Of a stretch of DNA of 43,965 bases, positions 2,000 to 38,361 are shown one piece after another. A program made the translations under genes and the position numbers. Location: positions 1 to 43,965 of the IMG/VR virus record IMGVR_UViG_3300027573_000010; one strand, 5' to 3'. Each line of letters opens with the position of its first letter. Positions within the stretch are counted from its first letter, which is position 1. This stretch comes from a virus. Under the pieces are notes generated by a model that was given only the letters and a program-made list of their open reading frames with translations, had not been told where the DNA came from and made no database searches.

Positions 2000-4821
2000 G
2001 CGCACGCATCCGCACCGGATATTCCTTCCGCCACGCAGCAGGCAAGATCGAGGACGTGCTGAAGCTGCTGCAGCATTTCAAGTATTCCCGCGCCCCGATC
2101 ACCGACACGGCGAGCACGTATGGCTGGGTCAAGTGGTCGGCGCAGGCGCGCGCACTCGGCATGGATCCGGTCTTCGGCGTCGAGCTCGCCGTGTCGAGCG
2201 ACATTACGGCAAAAAAGCCGATCGTCGACTATTGGACTTTTCTTTCGCGTGATAGCGTCGTTCCGTTGCACGGTCTCATTGGCGTGGCGACCGGGCAATT
2301 TCGCTATGAACCCCTGCTGACGATCGACCAGGCAGTCAGTGCAGCGTCAGTTGTCAACGTCATCATGGGTCATCGCGCCCCGGTCGGGACCCTCCAAGCC
2401 CGGCCGGGGTTGTGGTTCGGTGCGGGCCCTGGCGTCGTGCGTCCGCAGCTGGCGCTCGCGCTGGAGCAGCGTCACCCACCCGTCGCCGTCTGCAATAATC
2501 GCTTTCCTTTCGAGCGCGACCGCGCCCTCTATGAGCTGGTGTGCGGCCGCCGCGCCATGTCGCAGTCCTACGAGCAGCACATTCTGTCGGACTATGACTT
2601 GGAGCGCTGCCTGCGCGATCACGATCTCGACCTCGACTTGCCCTATGAGGCAATTGACAACCGCAATATCGTCCTGGAGCAGGCGATCGCCGTCCTGCCG
2701 CACGCCACCATGCTGAAGCCGGACAGGTCGCAGGGATCACTGAGGCAAATATGCCTGCTGGGGGCGGAAAAGCTCGGCCTGTCGCTGAACGACACCTACA
2801 CGACACGCCTCAACCGCGAGCTGGAGCTGATCGCGTCCAAGGGGTTCGAAGACTACTTCTACCTGGTGGCCGATCTCGTATCCTGGGCGCGCGAGCGCAT
2901 GTTGGTGGGGCCGGCGCGCGGCTCTTCCTGCGGATCCCTGGTTTGCTACCTGCTCGGCATTACCACGGTCGACCCGATCCCCTACGGGCTGCTGTTCGAA
3001 CGCTTCATCGACGTCAACCGACCCGACCTGCCCGACATCGACATCGACTTTTCCGACCAGCACCGCGAGCTGGTGTTCGACTACCTGCGGCAGAAGTATG
3101 GGGCGAACAAGGTCGCGCGGCTCGGCACCGTCAACATGTACCAGCCGCGCTCCGCCCTGAAGGAGCTGGCGATCGCGCTCGACATCCCGGTGTGGGCGAC
3201 CGACGCGCTGGCGGACCAGGCCGAGCAGACATCCCTGAAGGAGGCCCTGGAAGGCAGCATGCTGGCCAGGAGCTATCCCGAGCTCAAGCACAACGCCCTG
3301 CGCATGGAGGATCACCCAAGGCATGCTGGCCAGCATGCGGCAGGCATCGTGATCACGGCCGGCGACGTTGCCGACGTCGTGGCGGTCGATCGGCGGACCG
3401 GCGCCACCATGTGCGACTACCGCGACGCCGAGACCTTGAACCTGCTCAAGATCGACGCGCTCGGGCTGACGCAGCTGTCGATCTTCGAGGACGCCCTGGA
3501 GCTCGCCGGCCTGCCGCGCGACGCCCTGTCCAAGGTCTCGTTCTTCGACCAGAAGGCCCTGCACATTCTCAACGCGCGCCGCTTCGCCGGTATCTTCCAG
3601 TTCAACGGGCCCGCGCTGCAGAACCTCTGCACCAAGACCACCATCAACTCGTTCGACGACATGGTGGCAATGACGGCGCTGGCACGCCCGGGACCGCTCG
3701 ACAGCGGCGAAGCGCAGCGCTGGGTCGGCATCAGGACCGGCAAGGCCAAGCCGACCTGGCCGCACCCGCTGTTCGAACCGATCCTGAAACCGACGCTCGG
3801 CATCGTGATCTACCAGGAACAGGTCATGCAAATCTGCCGATCCGTCGGCATGTCGTGGGAGGAAGTGTCTGCTTTGCGCCGGCTGATCTCGAAGTCGGCA
3901 GGGCCTGAGGCCATGGAAAAATATTTCGAGAGCTTTGTCCGAAACGGCATTACCGCCGGCATACCGGAACAAACCTTGAACGACGTCTGGAGCGTCCTGA
4001 AGGCGTCAGGAGCCTACTCGTTCAACAAGTCGCACGCGGTGGCCTACTCGGTCATTTCGTTCTGGTGCTGCTGGCTGAAGGCGCACCATCCGCTGGAATT
4101 CGCCGCAGCCACCCTGACCCATGCGGGCGACGACATGCAGCTCAAGCTGCTGCGCGAGCTTGCCAGGGAAGGCACGCGGTATCTGCCTGCCGACGCCAAG
4201 CTGTCGACCGACAAATGGACGGTGGCGACCATCGACGATCGCAAGGCCCTGATCGGACCCCTGAGCAATATCATTGGTATAGGTCCGCAACACCAAAGGA
4301 CAATCCTGTCCGCGCGTGTCCGCCCCAACGAGCGCCTGCCGGCCAATATCGGCAAGATCCTGCACCGCATGAAAACCAAGGTGGACGACCTCTGGCCGAT
4401 CCAGACCGCTATATCCGGTCTGATGACCGAGCAGCTGAAACAAGATCTTGTGTCGAAGCGCACCGACATCATCGACATACAGCCTAATGGGCAGTCCTTT
4501 ACCGTGCGGGTGGAAGGACTGATCGACTCCTTGAAGCAAATCAGCGAGAATTCCCCCGAGCGGATCCAGCGCAGGCAAGGACGCAAGGCTGGCGGAGACC
4601 ACGCGCTCAATCTCTGGATCAGAGACGACACCGACAAGATCTTCGTCAAGGTGGACTGGTCGCTGTTCGAAGAGATGGGCAAGGAAATCATTGATCGCGG
4701 CAAAGGCTACTATTCCATTCGCGGCACCGTCCCTGCTGATTTTCGCATGATACGGCTGGAGAAATTCCGCTTCATTGGATCAGGGGTGGCAGACGATGCA
4801 AAAGATCTCGCAGCTGACTGA
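1996..4821 (+). CDS. DNA polymerase III alpha subunit (DnaE type)
   Basis: The predicted replicative C-family polymerase is 941 aa, shorter than bacterial DnaE (about 1,160). Visible hallmarks are VGPARGSSCGSL at about 304-315, the catalytic PDIDIDF at 346-352 (Asp347, Asp349), the third catalytic aspartate in LLKIDALGL (Asp487), and FNKSHAVAYS from 676. The N-terminal PHP domain is present in outline, but its first metal motif is replaced by RTGYSFRHAAG, so PHP exonuclease activity is probably lost. The shorter length suggests loss of C-terminal clamp-loader binding parts. ATG 1996 follows AAGGAAGGA and overlaps the previous stop; the ATG at 1942 lies within the upstream gene. Proofreading is probably supplied by the exonuclease at 404. 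Confidence 0.95.
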   Translation: MSARIRTGYSFRHAAGKIEDVLKLLQHFKYSRAPITDTASTYGWVKWSAQARALGMDPVFGVELAVSSDITAKKPIVDYWTFLSRDSVVPLHGLIGVATGQFRYEPLLTIDQAVSAASVVNVIMGHRAPVGTLQARPGLWFGAGPGVVRPQLALALEQRHPPVAVCNNRFPFERDRALYELVCGRRAMSQSYEQHILSDYDLERCLRDHDLDLDLPYEAIDNRNIVLEQAIAVLPHATMLKPDRSQGSLRQICLLGAEKLGLSLNDTYTTRLNRELELIASKGFEDYFYLVADLVSWARERMLVGPARGSSCGSLVCYLLGITTVDPIPYGLLFERFIDVNRPDLPDIDIDFSDQHRELVFDYLRQKYGANKVARLGTVNMYQPRSALKELAIALDIPVWATDALADQAEQTSLKEALEGSMLARSYPELKHNALRMEDHPRHAGQHAAGIVITAGDVADVVAVDRRTGATMCDYRDAETLNLLKIDALGLTQLSIFEDALELAGLPRDALSKVSFFDQKALHILNARRFAGIFQFNGPALQNLCTKTTINSFDDMVAMTALARPGPLDSGEAQRWVGIRTGKAKPTWPHPLFEPILKPTLGIVIYQEQVMQICRSVGMSWEEVSALRRLISKSAGPEAMEKYFESFVRNGITAGIPEQTLNDVWSVLKASGAYSFNKSHAVAYSVISFWCCWLKAHHPLEFAAATLTHAGDDMQLKLLRELAREGTRYLPADAKLSTDKWTVATIDDRKALIGPLSNIIGIGPQHQRTILSARVRPNERLPANIGKILHRMKTKVDDLWPIQTAISGLMTEQLKQDLVSKRTDIIDIQPNGQSFTVRVEGLIDSLKQISENSPERIQRRQGRKAGGDHALNLWIRDDTDKIFVKVDWSLFEEMGKEIIDRGKGYYSIRGTVPADFRMIRLEKFRFIGSGVADDAKDLAAD

Positions 4822-7012
4822 CGTTCCGTCGATCGCGCTCTACCTGGGCAGGATCGGCGCCGTTCCCCGCTCCATCCGCGTCGCCATCATCGAGGACAAG
4901 AAGGGCAAGTATTGGGAGGACCGCGCCTACGTCCGCTTCGATCCCAAGGCGCGCACCGTCGCGGCGTCAGCGGACGACTACGCGCCGAGCGAGGAAGAGC
5001 TCGAAGCGATCATCAAGGACATGGAAGTCTACCAATGGCCGGGATCGAAGCTGCTCGGCAAGATCTACGAGCTCCCGGACGCCCTCAAGGGCGAGCCGCC
5101 TGACAGCCTGTTCGAATTCCGCAACAAGGCCGGACAGCTGATCATGCTGCAGCAGCGCACCGAGAAGACGGATCGCGGCAAGTACCGCCCGTGGACCTGC
5201 TTCGACGACGACGAGTGGCGCATGACGGAGCCGGACGGTCCGTTGCCGTTGTGGGGCATGGAGCACCTGAAGGACCACACGACCGTTTTCATCCATGAAG
5301 GCGCCAAGGCGGCCCGCGCCATGCACCGGCTGGTCAACCCGGTGACGGAGGCCGACAGGGCAGCCCTGAAGGCGCACCCTTGGGGACAGGACATGTCAGG
5401 CGTCGCGCACCTGGGCTGGATTGGAGGCGCCCTCAATCCATCCAGGACTGACTGGTCGCAGCTGGCCAAGTCAGGCGTCAAGATCGCCTACATCGTTGCC
5501 GACAACGACGTCCACGGCACCGTTGCGGTGCCGCGCATTGCCAGGGAGCTGCGCGGCATCATGGCGCTCAGCGTCGAGTTCAACGACACCTTCCCTCCGT
5601 CCTTCGACCTGGCGGACGAATGGCCGGACAACTTCTTTCACCACCGCGCCAACGACACCATCTATCGCGGCCCGAGCTTCGAGGACCACCTGCAGCCTGC
5701 CACCTGGGCAACGGACGAAGTGCAGGTGAAGGGGTCGAAGAAAAAGGCGATCGTGCTGCGCAACGAATTCAAGAGCCTCTGGTCGTGGGTCAGGGAGACA
5801 GACCAATATGTCTGCGTCGAGCGCCCGACCATGCGCTACACCAAGGACATCTTCGACGGATATGCGTCCGCCTTCAGCCACGGAGGCAAGTCGATCTCCG
5901 CCATGCTGCGCGCGGAGTGGCGCTCGCAACTGGCAAAGATCGCCTACCGCCCCGACACCGACGAGCGCGTGATCAGCAACAAGGGCGACGTCCGCGCCAT
6001 CAACGTCTTCTCTCCCACGCGCATCGCCTCCATGGCCGGCGACGCGACGCCCTGGAACGAGTTCATCCGCTACCTGTTCCCGGACCCTGCGGAGCGGCAC
6101 GAGATGATGCGTTGGTGCGCGACCCTGATCGCGCAACCCGCCATCCGCATGGGCTACGCCACCCTGCTGGTGACGGAGACGCAAGGGATCGGCAAGAACA
6201 CGCTGGGTGAAAAGATCCTGGCTCCCCTGGTCGGCATGCACAATTGCAGCTTTCCGAACGAGCGCGAGGTAGTGGAAAGCCAGTTCAATTCCTGGCTGGT
6301 CAACAAGCGCTTTGCCTTCATTGGCGAGATCTATACCGGACGATCGTGGAAGGCGGCAAACCTGCTCAAGTCATACATCACCGATCGCGAGACGGCAGTG
6401 AACGAGAAGTTCATCCGTTCCTACACGACGGAGAACTGGATCCACGTCATGGCGTGCTCGAATTCGCTGCGCGCGCTCAAGCTCGACAACACCGATCGCA
6501 GATGGCTGGTTCCGACCCTGACGGAAACACCGTGGCCGCACCGCCAGTGGGTCGAATTCAACGACTGGCTCGAAGGGACCGGGCTGTCGATCATCAGGCA
6601 CTGGGCCGAGACGTTTGGCGACTATGTCAGGATAGGCGAGCACGCGCCCATGACGGCGCGCAAGCGCGAGATGCAGCGCGAGAGCGAGAGCGAAGCGGCG
6701 CAGCTGCTGCACGACTGGTGCGAGGCGCACGTCGACATGCCGATCTCGGTCGCGGAGGCAGCCATCCTGCGCATGCTGCAGCACAACATCAAGCAGGTCT
6801 ACGAGAGCAAGCTGGAGCTGCGCCGCATCATGGAAAAGGTCGGCTGGGTCGCCTTCAAGGAGCGGCTCAAGATCGACAGCACCATGCAAACCGTCATGAT
6901 GTCGCCCAAGGCAGCGCAGGACCTGGCCAGCTATCCAGGCGAGATAGAGCAGCGCAAATGGGTGCGATCGATCATCAAGCTGCCGATTGACCCGGACGAG
7001 GCGACGCTGTAA
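4796..7012 (+). CDS. Primase/helicase with TOPRIM-like and DUF5906-type ATPase regions
   Basis: At 738 aa this carries, after an uncharacterised N-terminal part, a TOPRIM-like core: the FIHEGAKAAR glutamate at about 168 and VADNDVHG with Asp236 and Asp238. A phage primase-helicase ATPase of the DUF5906/SF3-like kind follows, with Walker A GIGKNT at 464-469, a Walker B-like FAFIGEIYTG near 506-515 and an arginine-finger region NTDRRW near 566. It probably unwinds and primes at the fork for the DnaE-type polymerase it overlaps by 26 nt. ATG 4796 is preferred; the upstream in-frame start at 4775 is TTG. DUF5906 membership is recognised from motif wording and was not searched. Confidence 0.85.
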   Translation: MQKISQLTDVPSIALYLGRIGAVPRSIRVAIIEDKKGKYWEDRAYVRFDPKARTVAASADDYAPSEEELEAIIKDMEVYQWPGSKLLGKIYELPDALKGEPPDSLFEFRNKAGQLIMLQQRTEKTDRGKYRPWTCFDDDEWRMTEPDGPLPLWGMEHLKDHTTVFIHEGAKAARAMHRLVNPVTEADRAALKAHPWGQDMSGVAHLGWIGGALNPSRTDWSQLAKSGVKIAYIVADNDVHGTVAVPRIARELRGIMALSVEFNDTFPPSFDLADEWPDNFFHHRANDTIYRGPSFEDHLQPATWATDEVQVKGSKKKAIVLRNEFKSLWSWVRETDQYVCVERPTMRYTKDIFDGYASAFSHGGKSISAMLRAEWRSQLAKIAYRPDTDERVISNKGDVRAINVFSPTRIASMAGDATPWNEFIRYLFPDPAERHEMMRWCATLIAQPAIRMGYATLLVTETQGIGKNTLGEKILAPLVGMHNCSFPNEREVVESQFNSWLVNKRFAFIGEIYTGRSWKAANLLKSYITDRETAVNEKFIRSYTTENWIHVMACSNSLRALKLDNTDRRWLVPTLTETPWPHRQWVEFNDWLEGTGLSIIRHWAETFGDYVRIGEHAPMTARKREMQRESESEAAQLLHDWCEAHVDMPISVAEAAILRMLQHNIKQVYESKLELRRIMEKVGWVAFKERLKIDSTMQTVMMSPKAAQDLASYPGEIEQRKWVRSIIKLPIDPDEATL

Positions 7013-7167: not shown

Positions 7168-8826
7168 ATGATCGAGATCGAGATCGGCGCCCAGACTTCC
7201 GTCCTGCGCGGCGACGTGGCGCAGCACGGGCGCACCTTTTCCAACGAGCTGGAAGGGCGCAGGCGCTGGATCGAGCAGGAAAATCGCTTCGTCTTCGAGA
7301 CGACGCCGCACAATCTACGGATCATTAAGCAAGCTTTCCCGGAGCTTGCGTTCAGCCTTCCGCAGTTCGGCGAGCAGGTGCTCGTAACGGTCGGGATCGT
7401 TCCCGCCTTTCGCATGCAGCCGCGTGACTACCAGCTCGAATGCTTCGAGCGCTTCCGTGACGCGGCGGTCTTTGCGCTTTTTTCCGATCCCGGAACCGGC
7501 AAGACCAAGACAGCGCTCGACATCATTTCCTGGCGTTGGCATCGCGGCCTCGTTACTGGCGTCCTGGTGTTCTCGTCCCCGAAGGGCGTCCACGCCCAAT
7601 GGGTCGAAGAGCAGATCCCGTTGCACATGTGGGAGAACGTACCACTGAGGGCCGCCTGGTGGAACGGCAGAAAAGAGCCGCACTGGGTCGGGGAGCCGAC
7701 GCAGGAGCTGCAGATCTTCTCCACCAACATCGACAGCCTGAACAGCGACAAGGCCTACGGCGTGCTGGAGCGCTTTTGCCACGTTCACAAGGACAAGCTC
7801 CTGATCGTCGTCGACGAGAGCGACAGCATCAAGTCCTGGGGAGCGAAGCGCTCGAAGCGGCTGCGCCTGCTCGCCTTCAATGCGCAGTGCAAACAGCGCA
7901 TGATCATGACCGGCACACCGATCGCCAAGGACCTGACGGACGAGTGGGCGCAGTTCTACTTCCTCAACCCCGACATCATCGGCCACAAGTACAAGACGTC
8001 GTTCCTGGCGCAGTTCTGCATCATGGGCGGCTTCGAGAACCGCAAGGTGGTCGGGCACAGGAACCTGGAGCTGTTCAAGAGCCTGACGGCGCCGCACATC
8101 TTCCGCGCAACCAAGGAGCAGCTGCACTTGCCACCGAAAATATACGACACCGTCGCCTTCGACCTGACCGACCAGCAGATCAAGCTGATCCGCGAAATCA
8201 AGGACACCTGCATCGCCGTGCTCGACGAGGAAAAGGACCAGCGCATCCTGGCCAGCACGGCAGCGACTGCCCTGCTGCGCATGCAGCAGATCTCGTGCGG
8301 CTTCGCGCGCTTGTCCGAGACCGACACCACCCCGATTGTCAATCCGCGCATGGACGCCTTGTTCAGCCTGCTCGACCAGATGCCGGACCGCAAGGTCGTG
8401 ATCTGGTGCCGCTTCCAGTACGACGTCGAGCTGGTCACCGCCAAGCTGAACATGGAGCGCGCGCCGGCCATGTGCATCTACGGGCCCATGAGCGACGGAG
8501 CGCGCTCCATGGCCAAGACGCAGTTCATCGAGTACCCGGACATTCGCTACCTGGTGGCGACGCCGGACGCCGCAGGGCGCGGCCTCGACGGCTTGCAAAA
8601 GGGCTGCTCACACGCCATATACTACTCCAACTCGTTCAACGCCATTGCGCGGTGGCAGAGCGAAGACCGCATCCACCGCATTGGACAGAACGCGACGGCG
8701 AGCTACTTCGACCTGATCGCGAGAGGGTCACCTGATCGCGCGATCCTGAAGAACCTGCGCGCCAAGAAAGACCTGTCCAACCTGGTGCTGGATGACATCC
8801 GCAAGATCATCGAAGGAGAAGAATGA
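7168..8826 (+). CDS. SNF2-family (SF2) DEAD/H-type helicase-translocase
   Basis: This 552-aa protein has a roughly 90-residue unique N-terminus and then the two RecA-like lobes of an SNF2-type ATPase. Motif I is DPGTGKTK at 107-114, motif II is DESD at 216-219 (a DEAH variant), and motif VI is QSEDRIHRIGQ at 497-507, which is characteristic of SNF2 rather than of other SF2 groups. Such phage proteins probably remodel or translocate on DNA during replication or recombination. The start ATG 7168 follows GAGGGG. The stop overlaps the next start. Confidence 0.92.
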   Translation: MIEIEIGAQTSVLRGDVAQHGRTFSNELEGRRRWIEQENRFVFETTPHNLRIIKQAFPELAFSLPQFGEQVLVTVGIVPAFRMQPRDYQLECFERFRDAAVFALFSDPGTGKTKTALDIISWRWHRGLVTGVLVFSSPKGVHAQWVEEQIPLHMWENVPLRAAWWNGRKEPHWVGEPTQELQIFSTNIDSLNSDKAYGVLERFCHVHKDKLLIVVDESDSIKSWGAKRSKRLRLLAFNAQCKQRMIMTGTPIAKDLTDEWAQFYFLNPDIIGHKYKTSFLAQFCIMGGFENRKVVGHRNLELFKSLTAPHIFRATKEQLHLPPKIYDTVAFDLTDQQIKLIREIKDTCIAVLDEEKDQRILASTAATALLRMQQISCGFARLSETDTTPIVNPRMDALFSLLDQMPDRKVVIWCRFQYDVELVTAKLNMERAPAMCIYGPMSDGARSMAKTQFIEYPDIRYLVATPDAAGRGLDGLQKGCSHAIYYSNSFNAIARWQSEDRIHRIGQNATASYFDLIARGSPDRAILKNLRAKKDLSNLVLDDIRKIIEGEE

Positions 8827-13711: not shown

Positions 13712-15280
13712 CTATGGCATCATCTGGTGCAGCGCGGACCACGCCAGCGCTTCGCGTTCGTCAGTATACGGTGTTCCGAGCACGCCCGTGCCGGCGCCGA
13801 CGGTGCCGGCCGTGCCAGCGCCCATGCCTGGACCCGTCACCGGGACGGCGTTGCGCGTGGCGCGCGCGTAGGCTGGCGAACGGCCGCGCATGGCTGCCGC
13901 CGCGTCTTCCCAGCGGCGCTCGATGCCGCTCGCGGCGCTTCCGCGCAAGCGATCAGAAAGGAATTTGCCGCCGGCCAGCGCCGGGATGTCACGACCGAAA
14001 TAATCGGCCCCAAACTTGGCGACGCGTTCCGGAAGCGTCGGCGTAATCGCAGCGGCGAGGCGGGCGCGTTCCTCTGGGATCCAGCCACGCTGGTTTGGGT
14101 ACTCTCCCCTTTTCCTCTCTCCCAGCTTCAGGCCCTTCGGCACCAGCTGTTCACCAACCGGAGGTCCGCCTGCTTGTGCCTTGGCGGCCGCGTTGGCGGC
14201 TGGATCCGTCAGCTGCTGCGAGCGGAACATGGCGGCGCGATCGCCGCGCGCGCGGGCGACCACCTGGGCGGCCTGGGCCCCCAGCTGCGGGTTCGACGCG
14301 GCGCCGGCCCCTTGCTGGATCATGTCGTCGAGGGTGTCGCGCAGGATGGCGGCTGCGACGCCGGCCTTTTCGCTGCCGACTGTCGGCATGTTCTTCATGT
14401 TGTTCAGGGATTGCCTGAACCCGTCGACCTGTGCCGGCGAAATGCTGCCAGGGTGATTGCGCATGCGCTCCAGGATCTGGAACACGGTTCGCGCCTGCTC
14501 CGGAGCCACGCCCTGGGTGATCATCTGGCTCTCGGCCTGGCTCAGCGTCCCCTGCAGGTGGTTGCCGGGGTAGGTCACCGGGATGCCGCGCAGGACCTGG
14601 TAGCCACGGTCCGACAGGGCGCGCAGTTCCTGTTCGCTCGGTTGCCGGATCGGCTGCCCCGTCGCCGGGTTGCCGGCGCGCATCCGCACGGCTGACGCCG
14701 GCACCAGGGCTGCGCCGGCCGCGCCTCCGATCAAACCGCCGACGGCAGCGCCCTTGCCGGCGTTCTTGGCGTAGTCGGCCGGATCACCGCTGTAGGTGTT
14801 GCCGGCGCCTTGCAGGCCCCCGACGGTGGCGGCCTCGGTGCCGAAGCCGGCAAACCGGGCCAGCGGCCCGGCTCCCAGGCGGCCGGCAATGTTGGCGCCG
14901 AGCTTGGTGGCGCCGCCGGCAATGCCAGTGCCGACGCCACCGGCAATGCCGCCGACCGTCGACGCGACGGGGCTGCGCTCGGAAATGGCCTCGCGCCGCT
15001 TCAGCCGCGCCGCCAAGGCCTCGTCATAGCTCGGCTTGCGCCCGGTGATGACGTCGCCAACGGCGTCCATGCGCGGCAGCATGCCGAAGCTGCCGTAGTG
15101 CCCGACGCCCTCGAAGAAGTCGCCCGTGCCCTGTGCGAGGTACTCGCCCCAGCCCTGCTCCTTGCGCGGCTCGGGAAGACCCCTGTCGTATTTGCTCCTG
15201 GCGGGAGCCGCGTCAGGCGGAAGCGGCCCGACGAATTCATCGGAAGCTTCCGGCGCGGCGATCCTGTCGTATTTGCCCAT
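13712..15280 (-). CDS. Internal/ejected virion protein, 522 aa
   Basis: An alanine/glycine-rich protein with a hydrophobic glycine-zipper-like middle (about residues 105-200, with GGIAGGVGTGIAGG and GGLIGGAAGAAL). Such segments occur in phage ejection proteins that insert into or cross membranes. Its first residues (MGKYDRI) recur as SKYDRG near residue 29. It has no enzyme motif. It lies with the 497- and 664-aa genes where T7-type phages keep internal core proteins gp14-gp16, and shares a four-base overlap with the upstream gene. Assignment by context and composition. Confidence 0.6.
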   Translation of the reverse strand: MGKYDRIAAPEASDEFVGPLPPDAAPARSKYDRGLPEPRKEQGWGEYLAQGTGDFFEGVGHYGSFGMLPRMDAVGDVITGRKPSYDEALAARLKRREAISERSPVASTVGGIAGGVGTGIAGGATKLGANIAGRLGAGPLARFAGFGTEAATVGGLQGAGNTYSGDPADYAKNAGKGAAVGGLIGGAAGAALVPASAVRMRAGNPATGQPIRQPSEQELRALSDRGYQVLRGIPVTYPGNHLQGTLSQAESQMITQGVAPEQARTVFQILERMRNHPGSISPAQVDGFRQSLNNMKNMPTVGSEKAGVAAAILRDTLDDMIQQGAGAASNPQLGAQAAQVVARARGDRAAMFRSQQLTDPAANAAAKAQAGGPPVGEQLVPKGLKLGERKRGEYPNQRGWIPEERARLAAAITPTLPERVAKFGADYFGRDIPALAGGKFLSDRLRGSAASGIERRWEDAAAAMRGRSPAYARATRNAVPVTGPGMGAGTAGTVGAGTGVLGTPYTDEREALAWSALHQMMP

Positions 15281-34568: not shown

Positions 34569-34835
34569 TTAGGCGTGTCCCTCGACTGTGCTGTCGTCGT
34601 CGACCAGCCGGCCGTATTCTTCGAGTTGCGCGCGCGACATGTCGATCAGGTGCTGCCCGATCTGCGCGACCTGCTGCGGGTCCGTGATGGCGGTGATGGT
34701 GTTGATGGTGACTTCGCCGTCGCCCTTCGGCACGATCACGACCAGCATGAACTGCAGCACGTTGCCGTTGTTCATGCCGGCGATGGCGTTGTGGATGCCG
34801 CTGGCCAGCATGCGCAGGTCGTCGTGCGTGTTCAT
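34569..34835 (-). CDS. Hypothetical protein between terminase and portal, 88 aa
   Basis: A small alpha/beta protein with a hydrophobic strand (NVLQFMLVVIVPKGDGEV) and a C-terminal acidic tail. Its start overlaps the terminase stop (ATGA at 34832-34835). It is not recognised. Its place suggests a packaging or portal accessory role. Confidence 0.7.
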   Translation of the reverse strand: MNTHDDLRMLASGIHNAIAGMNNGNVLQFMLVVIVPKGDGEVTINTITAITDPQQVAQIGQHLIDMSRAQLEEYGRLVDDDSTVEGHA

Positions 34836-36229
34836 AGCTGCATGCCCCCGTAGCGCCGCACGATCGGGCCGTCCTCGGGCGGCGGAATGAACCAGCCGGT
34901 GTGCTTCGGCTCTGGCGGTTTTACTACCGGAAGGGCTTGCCACGCCAGCGACAAATAGCGGAAGGCGTCGGCGTAGTGCGAGGTCCAGTCATGCTCCTCG
35001 TCCTTGCTGAAGGCCTTCAGCTCGGCATCCCACTTGCGGTGATAGAGCTCCAGGGCGGCCAGGCCGACCTCCTCGGTGCGCGGGTGAAAGACGCAGAGCG
35101 GAAGCGTCCTGCGTGCGGCCTCGATGCCGTCCGCCTTGGTGGCGCCGCGCACGACGTTCGGGTTGAGGCCAAACTCCTGCATGCTCTCGACGCGCGTGCG
35201 GCCGCCGCCCCATTCGAACACCTTGGCGTCGTGCGGGACGTAGTCGGTGCCGTCGATCCATCCGTGCTGCTTGCGGCGCTCCGCGATCATGTCGCGGTAG
35301 TGCTCCACGCCCACGTTGCTGGCGCCGTAGACATCGAGAATGAAGATCTGCCCTCCGACCATCTGGAACCACCAGATGGCGGTGTCGTGACGCACGCCGA
35401 TGTCCCAGGCGCGATGCACCGGGCGATCGTAGTCCGGCGCGATCGGCTGCACGCGGCGCTCCTTGCGCACGTCCATCATTTCCAGTGCATAGAACGCGCC
35501 GAGCACTGAGCTGTTAAAATCAACCAGGTATTCCTGCTGATATTGGCTGGTGCCGACGTCGCGACCGTACAGCGCAATATATTCCTTCAGCGAGGCTTCG
35601 AGCTGCTCGCCTGAAAGGGCTTTGGTATCGAACGCCGTCAGCTTCTCGGCAAACCATCCAGGCGACTGCAGCGCCATGTCGTACATGGATTTGGCATGAT
35701 TACGGCCGCGCGGTGTCGTGATGAATGCGGCCCATCCGTTATTTTCTTCCAGGATTGGGCGGTGATAACTCCACGCGCCTGGATGCGAGAGCGCCCATTC
35801 GCTGTACGCGATGCCGACAGGCGAGGAGCCCATCTGTGCATTGTAATTGTCGGAGCCAATCACCTGCCAGGTCGATCCGTTGCGAAAGCGGATGAACATC
35901 TCGTTGTCGTTTGTGTTCGCGCGGATCTCGTGCGGGAAGGCCTCGTCGATGCGACGCCTGCCGGTGTGGCCGTTGATGGCATTCCAGATAGCCTTGCGGC
36001 CCTGCGCATACTCGGGCAGGCAGTGCCAGTAGTTGCCGACGCGCTCCTGGGAGGCGCACGCGGTGTGATGCAGGATGACGTCGTCCTTGCCGGCGCGGCG
36101 GTGCCAGATGGCGATGGCGCGCTTGCCACCGTCCGCCAGATAATTCCAAAGCGGCTTTTGATAATCGCGCGCGCGCCAATTATTCGGCAGCCGGATCTTT
36201 AATCCCGTTGCCGTTGACGTGTTTGCCAT
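34832..36229 (-). CDS. Terminase large subunit
   Basis: At 465 aa this shows an ATPase with a Walker A variant HRRAGKDD (residues 43-50) and a Walker B-like AYSEW with Glu144. A C-terminal RNase H-like nuclease follows, with acidic residues in RAWDIGV (about 272) and HYADAFRYL (about 418-426). This is the layout of phage packaging motors. It packages DNA into the prohead through the portal. The start overlaps the terminase small-subunit gene by 50 nt. Confidence 0.92.
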   Translation of the reverse strand: MANTSTATGLKIRLPNNWRARDYQKPLWNYLADGGKRAIAIWHRRAGKDDVILHHTACASQERVGNYWHCLPEYAQGRKAIWNAINGHTGRRRIDEAFPHEIRANTNDNEMFIRFRNGSTWQVIGSDNYNAQMGSSPVGIAYSEWALSHPGAWSYHRPILEENNGWAAFITTPRGRNHAKSMYDMALQSPGWFAEKLTAFDTKALSGEQLEASLKEYIALYGRDVGTSQYQQEYLVDFNSSVLGAFYALEMMDVRKERRVQPIAPDYDRPVHRAWDIGVRHDTAIWWFQMVGGQIFILDVYGASNVGVEHYRDMIAERRKQHGWIDGTDYVPHDAKVFEWGGGRTRVESMQEFGLNPNVVRGATKADGIEAARRTLPLCVFHPRTEEVGLAALELYHRKWDAELKAFSKDEEHDWTSHYADAFRYLSLAWQALPVVKPPEPKHTGWFIPPPEDGPIVRRYGGMQL

Positions 36230-36592: not shown

Positions 36593-36666
36593 CGCTGGTG
36601 CGTTTTGCAACAAACCCTATGCACCCTACCGGGCAGCCCTTTTTATCGCACCAGCGGGCTCCGCTG
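36593..36666. repeat. Perfect 10-bp inverted repeat, 54-bp spacer
   Basis: CGCTGGTGCG at 36593-36602 is the exact inverse complement of CGCACCAGCG at 36657-36666. It brackets the gap before the small-terminase gene and the end of the nuclease gene. It may be part of a packaging or control site, or a chance pair. Confidence 0.4.
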
Positions 36667-37204
36667 CAGGCTGGTGAGGTTGTCCTAGAGCCGCAGAGGC
36701 TAATTGCTCTTGCCACCACGCGCGCGGACCTTGCCACCACGCATCCAGATCGAGCCGGTTATCCTCCGCCACGAGGTGCAGCTGCTCCAGGGGATAACCG
36801 TCTTTCCAGCCCATGAGCTGTTCACGGCCCGGGCGATCGATTACCCAGGCGCACCAGCCACGGGCGAGCAGGGTCGCAACGACCAGGCGGGAATAGCCAC
36901 CGGCACGAACAAAGCCATCGTGCCAAGCAATCTGGCTGGGGCGCAGGCGGGACGGGCGCACGATGTTCCCTCCCCGGGTGATGGTGTGTTCCCAACCGGC
37001 AGGCGTCTCCCGCTTCAATCGCCTCGGCAGGATAGCCCGGACTTCGGCAAGCTTGAGCTCGATCGGAACATAGAGGGCGGTCCCCGGCACCAGCATACCC
37101 AGGTCAGGATACCCGAAGGTGGATCCAGCCCCTGGGCTAATGGTATCCATCCACCTTCCCTGGAGCTCGTTTGCCAACCATCCCTTGAGTTGTAATTCAC
37201 TCAT
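36626..37204 (-). CDS. PD-(D/E)XK nuclease, Holliday-resolvase/VRR-like style
   Basis: This 192-aa protein has YPDLG at residues 32-36 (Asp34) and PIELKLAE at 47-54 (Glu49, Lys51), giving the PD-x(14)-ExK core of this fold. Upstream KGWLANELQGRW is like the helix with an acidic residue that completes the active site. It is likely a structure-specific or resolvase-type nuclease. It is the first gene of the late block and faces the large inverted repeat at 37291-37457. ATG 37204 follows AAAGGG. The family call is by motif only. Confidence 0.8.
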   Translation of the reverse strand: MSELQLKGWLANELQGRWMDTISPGAGSTFGYPDLGMLVPGTALYVPIELKLAEVRAILPRRLKRETPAGWEHTITRGGNIVRPSRLRPSQIAWHDGFVRAGGYSRLVVATLLARGWCAWVIDRPGREQLMGWKDGYPLEQLHLVAEDNRLDLDAWWQGPRAWWQEQLASAALGQPHQPAAEPAGAIKRAAR

Positions 37205-37240
37205 TATTAGCCCTTTCTGATGTGGGAAGCAGAGTATTAG

Positions 37241-37269
37241 AATAAAGCATTTATTTAAGAGCCTGGCAA
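37241..37269 (-). promoter_or_regulatory. Possible late promoter ahead of the nuclease gene
   Basis: On the minus strand TTGCCA (37269-37264) is followed by 17 bases and then TTTATT (37246-37241) in an AT-rich stretch about 37 bases before the start codon. The -10 match is modest. It is the only promoter-like signal I see between the early leftward genes and the late block, so it is a candidate for late transcription with the sigma-like protein. Confidence 0.35.
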
Positions 37270-37290
37270 ACGGGCAAAAACGGTATCAGA

Positions 37291-37457
37291 GGGTAGGAAC
37301 GAAAAAGCTCAAAGATCGCGTCTTGATCATTCTGGCGCCGCTCTCACTTTTTTTCTCTCACCCTCCTCTTTTTCTTTTTTTTTACTTTTCCGATAAAAAG
37401 GTTGGAGCGGTACCAGAACGATCAAAACGTGATCTTTGAGCTTTTCGATCCTACCCC
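37291..37457. repeat. Large imperfect inverted repeat around a homopurine tract
   Basis: Arms of about 52 bases (37291-37343 and 37405-37457) match at about 46 of 53 aligned positions in inverse orientation, with one single-base gap. The central 60 bases include a nearly pure pyrimidine run on the plus strand (37345-37391), which is homopurine on the other strand. Within each arm are repeated GATC boxes. It fills the only 255-bp gene-free region, between the early leftward genes and the late block. It may be a replication origin, packaging site, regulatory cruciform or attenuator. Confidence 0.9.
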
Positions 37458-37459
37458 CT

Positions 37460-37732
37460 TCAGCAGTCATTCACCTGGACCTCTGCCTCAGGCATCTTCT
37501 CCTGGTGGTGCCGCTCCCAGAGCGGCTGCAGCCCGAAGCCGTTCGCAATGACGGCGCCGCACCCCTGGCACTCCCAGGTATCTGCCTGCCAGGCCTTGTA
37601 GGGTTTCCACAGCTCCGGAGCCTCCAGGCCGGCGGGCACCATGGTGCCGATCGGCATGTTCTCCTGCACGGTGACGCCGTTGCGCAGGGGGCGGAAAAAC
37701 CGCTGGCACGGGACGCAGACGGGCTTCGGCAT
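37460..37732 (-). CDS. Small zinc-finger-like protein, 90 aa
   Basis: CVPC near residue 5 and CQGC near 55 give two CxxC pairs, with His residues (ERHHQE) further on, so it probably binds one or two zinc ions. It starts two bases after the SprT-like gene stop, with AAGGAG upstream, and ends close to the large inverted repeat. The function is not known. Confidence 0.7.
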   Translation of the reverse strand: MPKPVCVPCQRFFRPLRNGVTVQENMPIGTMVPAGLEAPELWKPYKAWQADTWECQGCGAVIANGFGLQPLWERHHQEKMPEAEVQVNDC

Positions 37733-37734
37733 GG

Positions 37735-38361
37735 TCAGCTCCTTTCCTTCGGCATCAGCAGCTGCTCTTCCGGATGCACCGGGCACGTCAGCCGGCCCCA
37801 CGTCAGCTGGTCGACCTTCACCTTCGCCACGAAGCCGCAGTGCGGGCAGGCGACGTTGGTCATCTTCGGGGTCTTCTGTTTGCGGAAGTCGACGGCTGCG
37901 CCGGCGACGAACCTGGCAGCTGGGAGGGGCCCCAACCGAGCAAGGACGTCCGCCCAGAGCATCCTGAACACCGCGCCCTCAGTCGTCGCCCTCAGCGGCC
38001 CTTCGAGCCCCAGGGCGCGCGCCAGCTTGCCGAAGCGCTTCCCGTGCTTCTCGGAGTGCGGCAGGGCCGCGTGCGCGAGCTCATGCACCATGATGCCGGC
38101 GACCTTCACCGGGTCGGTCTCCGCCGCCGTGATCCAGATCTCGCGTCCGTTGTCCTCCGACACGGCGTCCGACCAGCACAGCCCGATGTAGCGCTGCTTC
38201 GCCCGGTGCGGCGGGCAGATGGCCGCCCGCACGATCGGCGGCAGAGGCTGGCCAGCATGCGCGAACAATGGCCGCGCCATTTCGATGAACTGCGTCAGCC
38301 ATGCGTCGCGGGTAAGTGCTTGTGCGGGAGCAACCAAAGCGGATTTCGTGGCGGATTTCAT
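37735..38361 (-). CDS. SprT-like zinc metallopeptidase
   Basis: This 208-aa protein carries the active-site motif HELAH at residues 93-97, followed by HSEKHGKRFGKLA that supplies the third ligand, in the SprT/Spartan style. A C-terminal zinc ribbon (CPHC at 172-175, CPVH at 193-196) completes it. Spartan-type proteases act on DNA-bound proteins, which suits a phage replication arm. ATG 38361 follows AGGAAC; a longer frame to 38673 overlaps the helicase gene. Confidence 0.85.
   Translation of the reverse strand: MKSATKSALVAPAQALTRDAWLTQFIEMARPLFAHAGQPLPPIVRAAICPPHRAKQRYIGLCWSDAVSEDNGREIWITAAETDPVKVAGIMVHELAHAALPHSEKHGKRFGKLARALGLEGPLRATTEGAVFRMLWADVLARLGPLPAARFVAGAAVDFRKQKTPKMTNVACPHCGFVAKVKVDQLTWGRLTCPVHPEEQLLMPKERS

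What the first reader, a model, noticed from the sequence alone, without database searches (positions are those of the whole stretch)
37205..37459. Large inverted repeat with a homopurine core beside the packaging genes
The only sizeable gene-free region holds two roughly 52-base inverse arms (37291-37343 and 37405-37457) at about 87% match, with GATC boxes in each arm. Between them is a plus-strand polypyrimidine run (37345-37391). A cruciform with a potential triplex-forming tract is rare in so compact a genome. It separates the early leftward genes from the late block and sits 5' of the nuclease and terminase genes. Origin, packaging site, recombination site or transcription switch are all possible.
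Basis: partly seen in the sequence, partly recalled or inferred. Interest (0 to 1): 0.85.

Follow-up and report, generated by a model that had tools for sequence, protein, structure and literature searches.

The report
Likely phage replication origin beside resolvase
A large inverted repeat in an uncultured phage is real and most likely the place where its DNA copying starts: two opposed sets of short repeats around an A/G-only stretch, next to a gene for a Holliday-junction-type DNA-cutting enzyme, a layout that recurs with different sequences in several unrelated phages.

Summary
The inverted repeat is real. It is the strongest in the 44-kb genome (score 32; next best 15; 200 shuffles at most 13). 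Its core is 90% purine on the minus strand, which is the coding strand here. It lies between two leftward genes, 84 nt upstream of a nuclease with a Holliday-junction-resolvase fold, so it does not separate opposed transcription units. Distant homologues of this nuclease in uncultured phages usually have the same layout upstream: inverted arms built from tandem 6-8 bp motifs around a purine-rich spacer. Arm sequences differ between lineages. The motif follows the primase lineage, not nuclease divergence. In several relatives the element lies directly 3' of the primase gene. Streptococcus phage Sfi21 has the same order: primase, annotated replication origin containing an 18-bp inverted repeat of tandem motifs around an A+T/GAGAGAGA spacer, orf143, then a VRR-NUC gene that its record does not annotate. 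PICI origins are described as two iteron sets flanking an AT-rich region. Best reading: a bipartite inverted-iteron replication origin, moved with its resolvase gene to the terminase end of this genome. Function is inferred, not tested. Main rivals: operator; resolvase/cruciform site. One related phage carries three copies, which is unexplained.

The parts
37291..37353 (.). left arm of the inverted repeat (proximal to the nuclease gene); holds AAAGCTCAAAGATC at 37304-37317 (+)
37395..37456 (.). right arm of the inverted repeat; holds AAAGCTCAAAGATC at 37431-37444 (-), including TCA-N4-TCA (TCAAAGATCA, 37430-37439 -)
37354..37394 (.). spacer between the arms: 90% purine on the minus strand, 66% A+T; proposed melting region
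37345..37391 (+). polypyrimidine tract (44/47); polypurine on the minus (coding) strand
36626..37204 (-). VRR-NUC/Hjc-like PD-(D/E)XK nuclease (192 aa), Holliday-junction-resolvase fold
   Evidence: AlphaFold pLDDT 88; Foldseek top hits Hjc and RecU, E 2e-3 to 3e-3; weak profile hit to 4QBO stNUC, E 0.07; no Pfam hit on its own
37460..37742 (-). small cysteine-rich ORF upstream of the repeat (start codon uncertain; the listed ORF runs to 37801)
4775..7012 (+). primase (PF19263 DUF5906); proposed initiator that would bind the arms
   Evidence: binding is inferred
7168..8826 (+). SNF2-type helicase directly after the primase; in Firmicutes phages the origin-like gap and VRR-NUC lie between these two genes
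34832..36229 (-). probable large terminase gene downstream of the nuclease (identity inferred from position and homologues)

Best explanation
The element is most likely the phage's replication origin, of the bipartite inverted-iteron kind. Each arm carries tandem short motifs (here GCTCAAAGATCA-like, 7-bp step) that a phage initiator, most likely the DUF5906 primase, would bind. The two opposed iteron sets flank an A/GA-rich tract where the duplex would open. The neighbouring Hjc-like nuclease would resolve branched intermediates and is an old genetic companion of this origin. In this phage the origin-nuclease pair has left its usual place between primase and SNF2 helicase and sits in front of the terminase genes. 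Shown: anatomy, recurrence, motif-primase correlation, synteny, matching layout in Sfi21. Inferred: initiator binding, melting, replication start, relocation.
For: (1) Recurrence: 13 of 22 non-identical nuclease loci have a hairpin upstream above all 60 shuffles, mostly with a purine tract in the spacer. (2) Arms hold tandem 6-8 bp repeats: summed score 106 against 55 in shuffles, 0 of 2000 as high; TCA-N4-TCA in 6 of 7 window-lineage arms against 0.28 expected, 0 of 5000. (3) The motif follows the primase, not the nuclease. Window-lineage primases (61-79% identical) share the TCAA-type motif although their nucleases fall to about 30% identity. Lineages with 46-47% primases have GGAAAY repeats and those with 36-38% have GTGTA repeats, at similar nuclease divergence. 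(4) Primase stop directly before the element in G031, G016 and G017. (5) Sfi21: primase, annotated origin with a perfect 18-bp inverted repeat of tandem TAGTTACT around a 71-nt A+T/GAGAGAGA spacer (score 18, 200 shuffles max 14), orf143, then a VRR-NUC ORF (PF08774, 1.3e-9). (6) PICI origins 'always' have two iteron sets flanking an AT-rich region, 3' of the initiator gene (PMC6092414). (7) Strep P9, Enterococcus AE4_2, Paenibacillus Dante, Staph phiSa2 and Corynebacterium SamW have a 280-380 nt gap full of inverted and tandem short repeats before VRR-NUC. (8) One copy per genome in most records read. (9) No strand bias of mismatches, as expected for a DNA-level element.
Against: In the window the element is not beside the primase. 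The spacer is homopurine rather than plainly A+T-rich, and L067's is neither. G016 has three diverged copies, unexpected for one origin. L005 has the tract but no inverted repeat; L038, L058 and L059 have the nuclease without the element next to it. Two close relatives without the nuclease (L008, L011) lack the element in the DNA held, though their contigs are partial. Third-position skew shows no switch at the site. The GenBank origin note for Sfi21 was taken as given; Foley et al. 1998 was not read. No binding, replication or coverage data exist.
Confidence: 0.55

Rival explanations
1. Operator or transcription switch: a phage regulator binds the tandem motifs in the two arms and controls the nuclease-terminase operon.
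For: The element usually lies directly 5' of the nuclease; opposed binding motifs are typical of operators; G016 carries three diverged copies at different intergenic sites.
Against: No sigma-70-like promoter or intrinsic terminator in the region. One G016 copy (40.7 kb) is oriented against the flanking genes. Arm complementarity extends well beyond the motifs. The matching Sfi21 element is annotated as an origin.
Confidence: 0.2
2. Structure site for the neighbouring resolvase: the arms fold out as a cruciform (or fold in single-stranded DNA) and the Hjc-like nuclease cuts it, giving an end for packaging or recombination, as poxvirus resolvase does at concatemer junctions.
For: Nuclease has a resolvase fold; standalone VRR-NUC proteins, two of them from phages, bind and cleave four-way junctions (PMC4103454); arms keep pairing while sequence turns over; terminase genes often follow.
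Against: Spacers of 32-141 nt make cruciform extrusion unfavourable; conserved tandem motifs are not needed for structure-only recognition; three copies in G016 would fragment that genome; VRR-NUC phages SETP3, Vibrio 1.017.O, Psq-1 and APSE-7 have no such gap directly 5' of the gene.
Confidence: 0.13
3. Packaging (cos/pac) site in front of the terminase genes.
For: Located upstream of TerS/TerL in the window lineage and in L043, L049, L052, L055 and L056. Four of about 22 contig 5' ends fall inside the repeat (hand count), but GA repeats also break assemblies.
Against: About 100 terminase relatives of two families scored without the nuclease show no comparable repeat with a purine core between co-directional genes; the long repeats found (L198, L080, L092, L236) lie in divergent-promoter-like or other contexts. 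In Firmicutes phages the same kind of element lies in the replication module.
Confidence: 0.05
4. RNA leader or attenuator hairpin of the nuclease mRNA.
For: Very stable fold on either strand.
Against: G.T and A.C mismatches are equal, 18:18, so no strand is favoured; no Rfam family reaches its gathering score; one G016 copy is oriented against its flanking genes.
Confidence: 0.04

Closest known systems
Streptococcus phage Sfi21 origin (AF115103, 34487-34784; 302-bp non-coding phage-inhibitory element)
   Same: Inverted repeat whose arms hold a tandem 8-bp motif, around an A-rich spacer containing GAGAGAGA; order primase - element - (orf143) - VRR-NUC gene
   Different: Next to the primase, A+T-rich rather than homopurine spacer, shorter arms (18 against about 52-63 bp), nuclease one gene further on; the window element is at the terminase end
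PICI/SaPI replication origins
   Same: Two sets of iterons flanking a presumed melting region (PMC6092414)
   Different: PICI origins lie directly 3' of pri/rep; iteron orientation and arm pairing were not compared here; PICI origin function has been tested, this one not
P4-family primase/initiator systems
   Same: L050-type primase matches the P4-family primase C-terminal model weakly (TIGR01613, 3.1e-9 but below its cut-off); P4 alpha protein binding origin iterons is own knowledge
   Different: Window primase shows only DUF5906; no iteron-binding domain identified
Poxvirus concatemer junction with Holliday junction resolvase
   Same: Inverted repeat handled by a viral resolvase (PMC6962361)
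   Different: Here the repeat is interrupted by a spacer and motif-bearing, the enzyme fold differs (Hjc-like against RuvC-like), and no cleavage is known

Membership tests
Bipartite iteron origin (Sfi21/PICI type) | two sets of short iterons flanking a central region | tested here: met
   tandem 6-8 bp repeats in arms, 0 of 2000 shuffles as high; TCA-N4-TCA 6 of 7 arms
Bipartite iteron origin (Sfi21/PICI type) | central region A+T-rich | tested here: inconclusive
   window spacer 66% A+T against 36% genome average, but 90% purine; across loci 48-76% A+T
Bipartite iteron origin (Sfi21/PICI type) | immediately 3' of the primase/initiator gene | tested here: not met
   not met in the window (primase at 4775-7012, SNF2 helicase follows, no repeats in the gap); met in G031, G016, G017
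Bipartite iteron origin (Sfi21/PICI type) | cognate initiator drives autonomous replication from it | not testable with these tools
   needs plasmid replication assay
VRR-NUC / Hjc-type resolvase (the neighbouring nuclease) | PD-(D/E)XK core with PD, ExK and Q motifs | tested here: met
   invariant D34, E49, K51, Q91 in 23 sequences
VRR-NUC / Hjc-type resolvase (the neighbouring nuclease) | match to the Pfam VRR_NUC model at its cut-off | tested here: not met
   no hit for the window protein; L005 homologue E 0.052, below cut-off
VRR-NUC / Hjc-type resolvase (the neighbouring nuclease) | resolvase fold | tested here: met
   model pLDDT 88; Foldseek top hits are Hjc/RecU (probability about 1.0, E 2e-3, TM-score by query length 0.28-0.47)
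VRR-NUC / Hjc-type resolvase (the neighbouring nuclease) | dimeric four-way-junction cleavage | not testable with these tools
   shown for relatives in PMC4103454 only
cos/pac packaging site | virion DNA ends or packaging series start at the site | not testable with these tools
   no read data; contig assembled as circular (127-bp end repeat)
Structured RNA | pairing favoured on the transcribed strand | tested here: not met
   18 G.T against 18 A.C mismatches

The most novel reading that the evidence does not exclude
An origin and a Holliday-junction-resolvase gene form a linked cassette in phages: the initiator binds opposed iterons, the purine core opens or forms a triplex, the arms fold into a junction, and the adjacent resolvase cuts it, coupling replication start to recombination or to making an end for packaging. 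The cassette moves between genome positions and swaps its iteron sequence while keeping its architecture.
Probability: 0.12. Interest if true: 0.8.

Novelty: new variant of a known kind. Interest (0 to 1): 0.55.

Why it matters
Replication origins of most phages known only from metagenomes cannot be placed. A recognisable anatomy (opposed tandem-motif arms around a purine or A-rich core, near VRR-NUC or 3' of a DUF5906/VirE-type primase) would let them be predicted from sequence in a group with no close cultured member in the collection searched. It also links a resolvase gene to an origin-like element across Gram-negative-type metagenomic phages and Gram-positive phages.

Tried and rejected
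Megablast of the region and tblastn of the window, L006, L052 and L050 nucleases against cultured phages: no matches. Genome-contig scans for the nuclease: none confirmed. Rfam: no gathering-level hit; sub-threshold miRNA hits are long-hairpin artefacts. A 'conserved RNA motif' that I suspected at 36600-36690 proved to be the coding 3' end of the nuclease gene. 'The repeat is strictly tied to the nuclease' was weakened: the nuclease-less terminase relatives tested also lack the window-type primase, so the two cannot be separated there. Long repeats without nuclease in L198, L080 and L092 look like duplicated divergent promoters. Third-position skew gave no signal. Contig-end clustering was judged too weak and open to assembly artefact.

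Full report
The window is a 43,965-base IMG/VR phage contig with a 127-base end repeat, so it was assembled as a circle. No close cultured relative was found. Rightward genes (0-12 kb) encode a Pol III alpha-type polymerase, a DUF5906 primase and an SNF2 helicase; leftward genes (12-44 kb) encode virion, packaging and further DNA-metabolism proteins. The finding lies in the leftward block, between a small cysteine-rich ORF and a 192-aa nuclease gene.

Observation. No other hairpin in the genome scores above 15 against its 32, and 200 shuffles reach at most 13. The core is 90% purine on the minus strand. The GATC boxes are not notable (420 in the window).

The neighbour. The nuclease has invariant PD, ExK and Q motifs across 23 homologues, an AlphaFold model of pLDDT 88, and Foldseek hits led by archaeal Hjc and RecU resolvases (E 2e-3 to 3e-3, modest TM-scores). 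It falls outside the Pfam VRR_NUC cut-off but a family profile weakly matches stNUC (4QBO, E 0.07). Two standalone VRR-NUC proteins of phages and one of Psychrobacter were shown to be dimeric and to cleave four-way junctions (PMC4103454).

Recurrence. Homologues at about 30% identity were collected from viral contigs. Upstream of most lies an inverted repeat with a purine-rich spacer; 13 of 22 non-identical loci beat all 60 shuffles. Arm sequences differ: TCAA-type repeats in the window lineage, GGAAAY in a second, GTGTA in a third. Arms are enriched in tandem 6-8 bp repeats (0 of 2000 shuffles as high), and TCA-N4-TCA occurs in 6 of 7 window-lineage arms against 0.28 expected. In two very close phages (L164, L161) the flanks and outer motifs are near-identical while the inside is replaced. 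Mismatches show no strand bias (18 G.T, 18 A.C), so selection on an RNA is not indicated.

What it belongs to. At first the element seemed tied to the nuclease: among relatives of two terminase families it was seen only where the nuclease was present. But the nuclease-less relatives tested also lack the window-type primase. Within the window lineage the primases are 61-79% identical and share the motif, while the nucleases drop to about 30%; lineages with 46-47% or 36-38% primases have other motifs at similar nuclease divergence. In G031, G016 and G017 the primase stop codon directly precedes the element. This fits an initiator and its iterons.

Known counterpart. Cultured Gram-positive phages with a VRR-NUC gene (P9, AE4_2, Javan159, Javan575, Dante, phiSa2) have primase or VirE-type gene - 280-380 nt gap - VRR-NUC - helicase; in five of the seven gaps analysed, SamW included, the gap is plainly full of inverted and tandem short repeats. 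In Sfi21 the annotated origin follows the primase, holds a perfect 18-bp inverted repeat of tandem TAGTTACT around a 71-nt A+T/GAGAGAGA spacer, and is followed by orf143 and an unannotated VRR-NUC ORF that I identified (PF08774, 1.3e-9). [quoted passage not shown] The window element matches the first feature, partly the second, and not the position. In the window the primase-helicase gap carries no repeats, so the element and the nuclease appear to have moved together to the terminase end; this step is inferred.

Mechanism. Inferred: the primase binds the opposed tandem motifs, the purine core melts (or forms a triplex or R-loop), and forks start; the resolvase handles branched intermediates. 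Unexplained: three diverged copies in G016, one oriented against its flanking genes; the tract without inverted repeat in L005; nuclease without the element in L038, L058 and L059; absence in the partial contigs L008 and L011; no skew signal. These keep confidence at 0.55, with an operator as the main rival.

Noticed in passing
G016 (L050 contig) about 19.5, 40.6-40.9 and 65.4-65.7 kb: Three diverged copies of the same element (AAAAGTGTAT inverted pairs plus purine tract) at three intergenic sites, one in reverse orientation to the flanking genes. Could mean a regulon, several origins or a mobile palindrome.
   Followed up: partly
L158, L160, L161, L163 (between the element and the nuclease): A NUMOD3-containing ORF (homing-endonuclease motif, PF07460 3.3e-7) inserted between element and nuclease; the inside of the inverted repeat also differs from the close relative L164, as if co-converted.
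   Followed up: partly
Sfi21 AF115103, locus L275:9183-9503: VRR-NUC ORF (106 aa, PF08774 1.3e-9) downstream of orf143, not annotated in the record.
   Followed up: yes
G018 (L038 contig) about 40.6-40.85 kb: Non-coding region rich in repeated ATTAAAATGC / TTAGTTCAAATTT motifs with a perfect 13-bp inverted repeat, about 5 kb from the nuclease: a candidate origin separated from the nuclease.
   Followed up: partly
L198 about 205-380; L080 about 2690-2850; L092 about 3010-3140: Long inverted repeats that look like duplicated divergent promoters upstream of other terminase operons.
   Followed up: no
window 14102-14123: A second uninterrupted 22-base polypyrimidine tract, inside the 13712-15280 ORF.
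   Followed up: no
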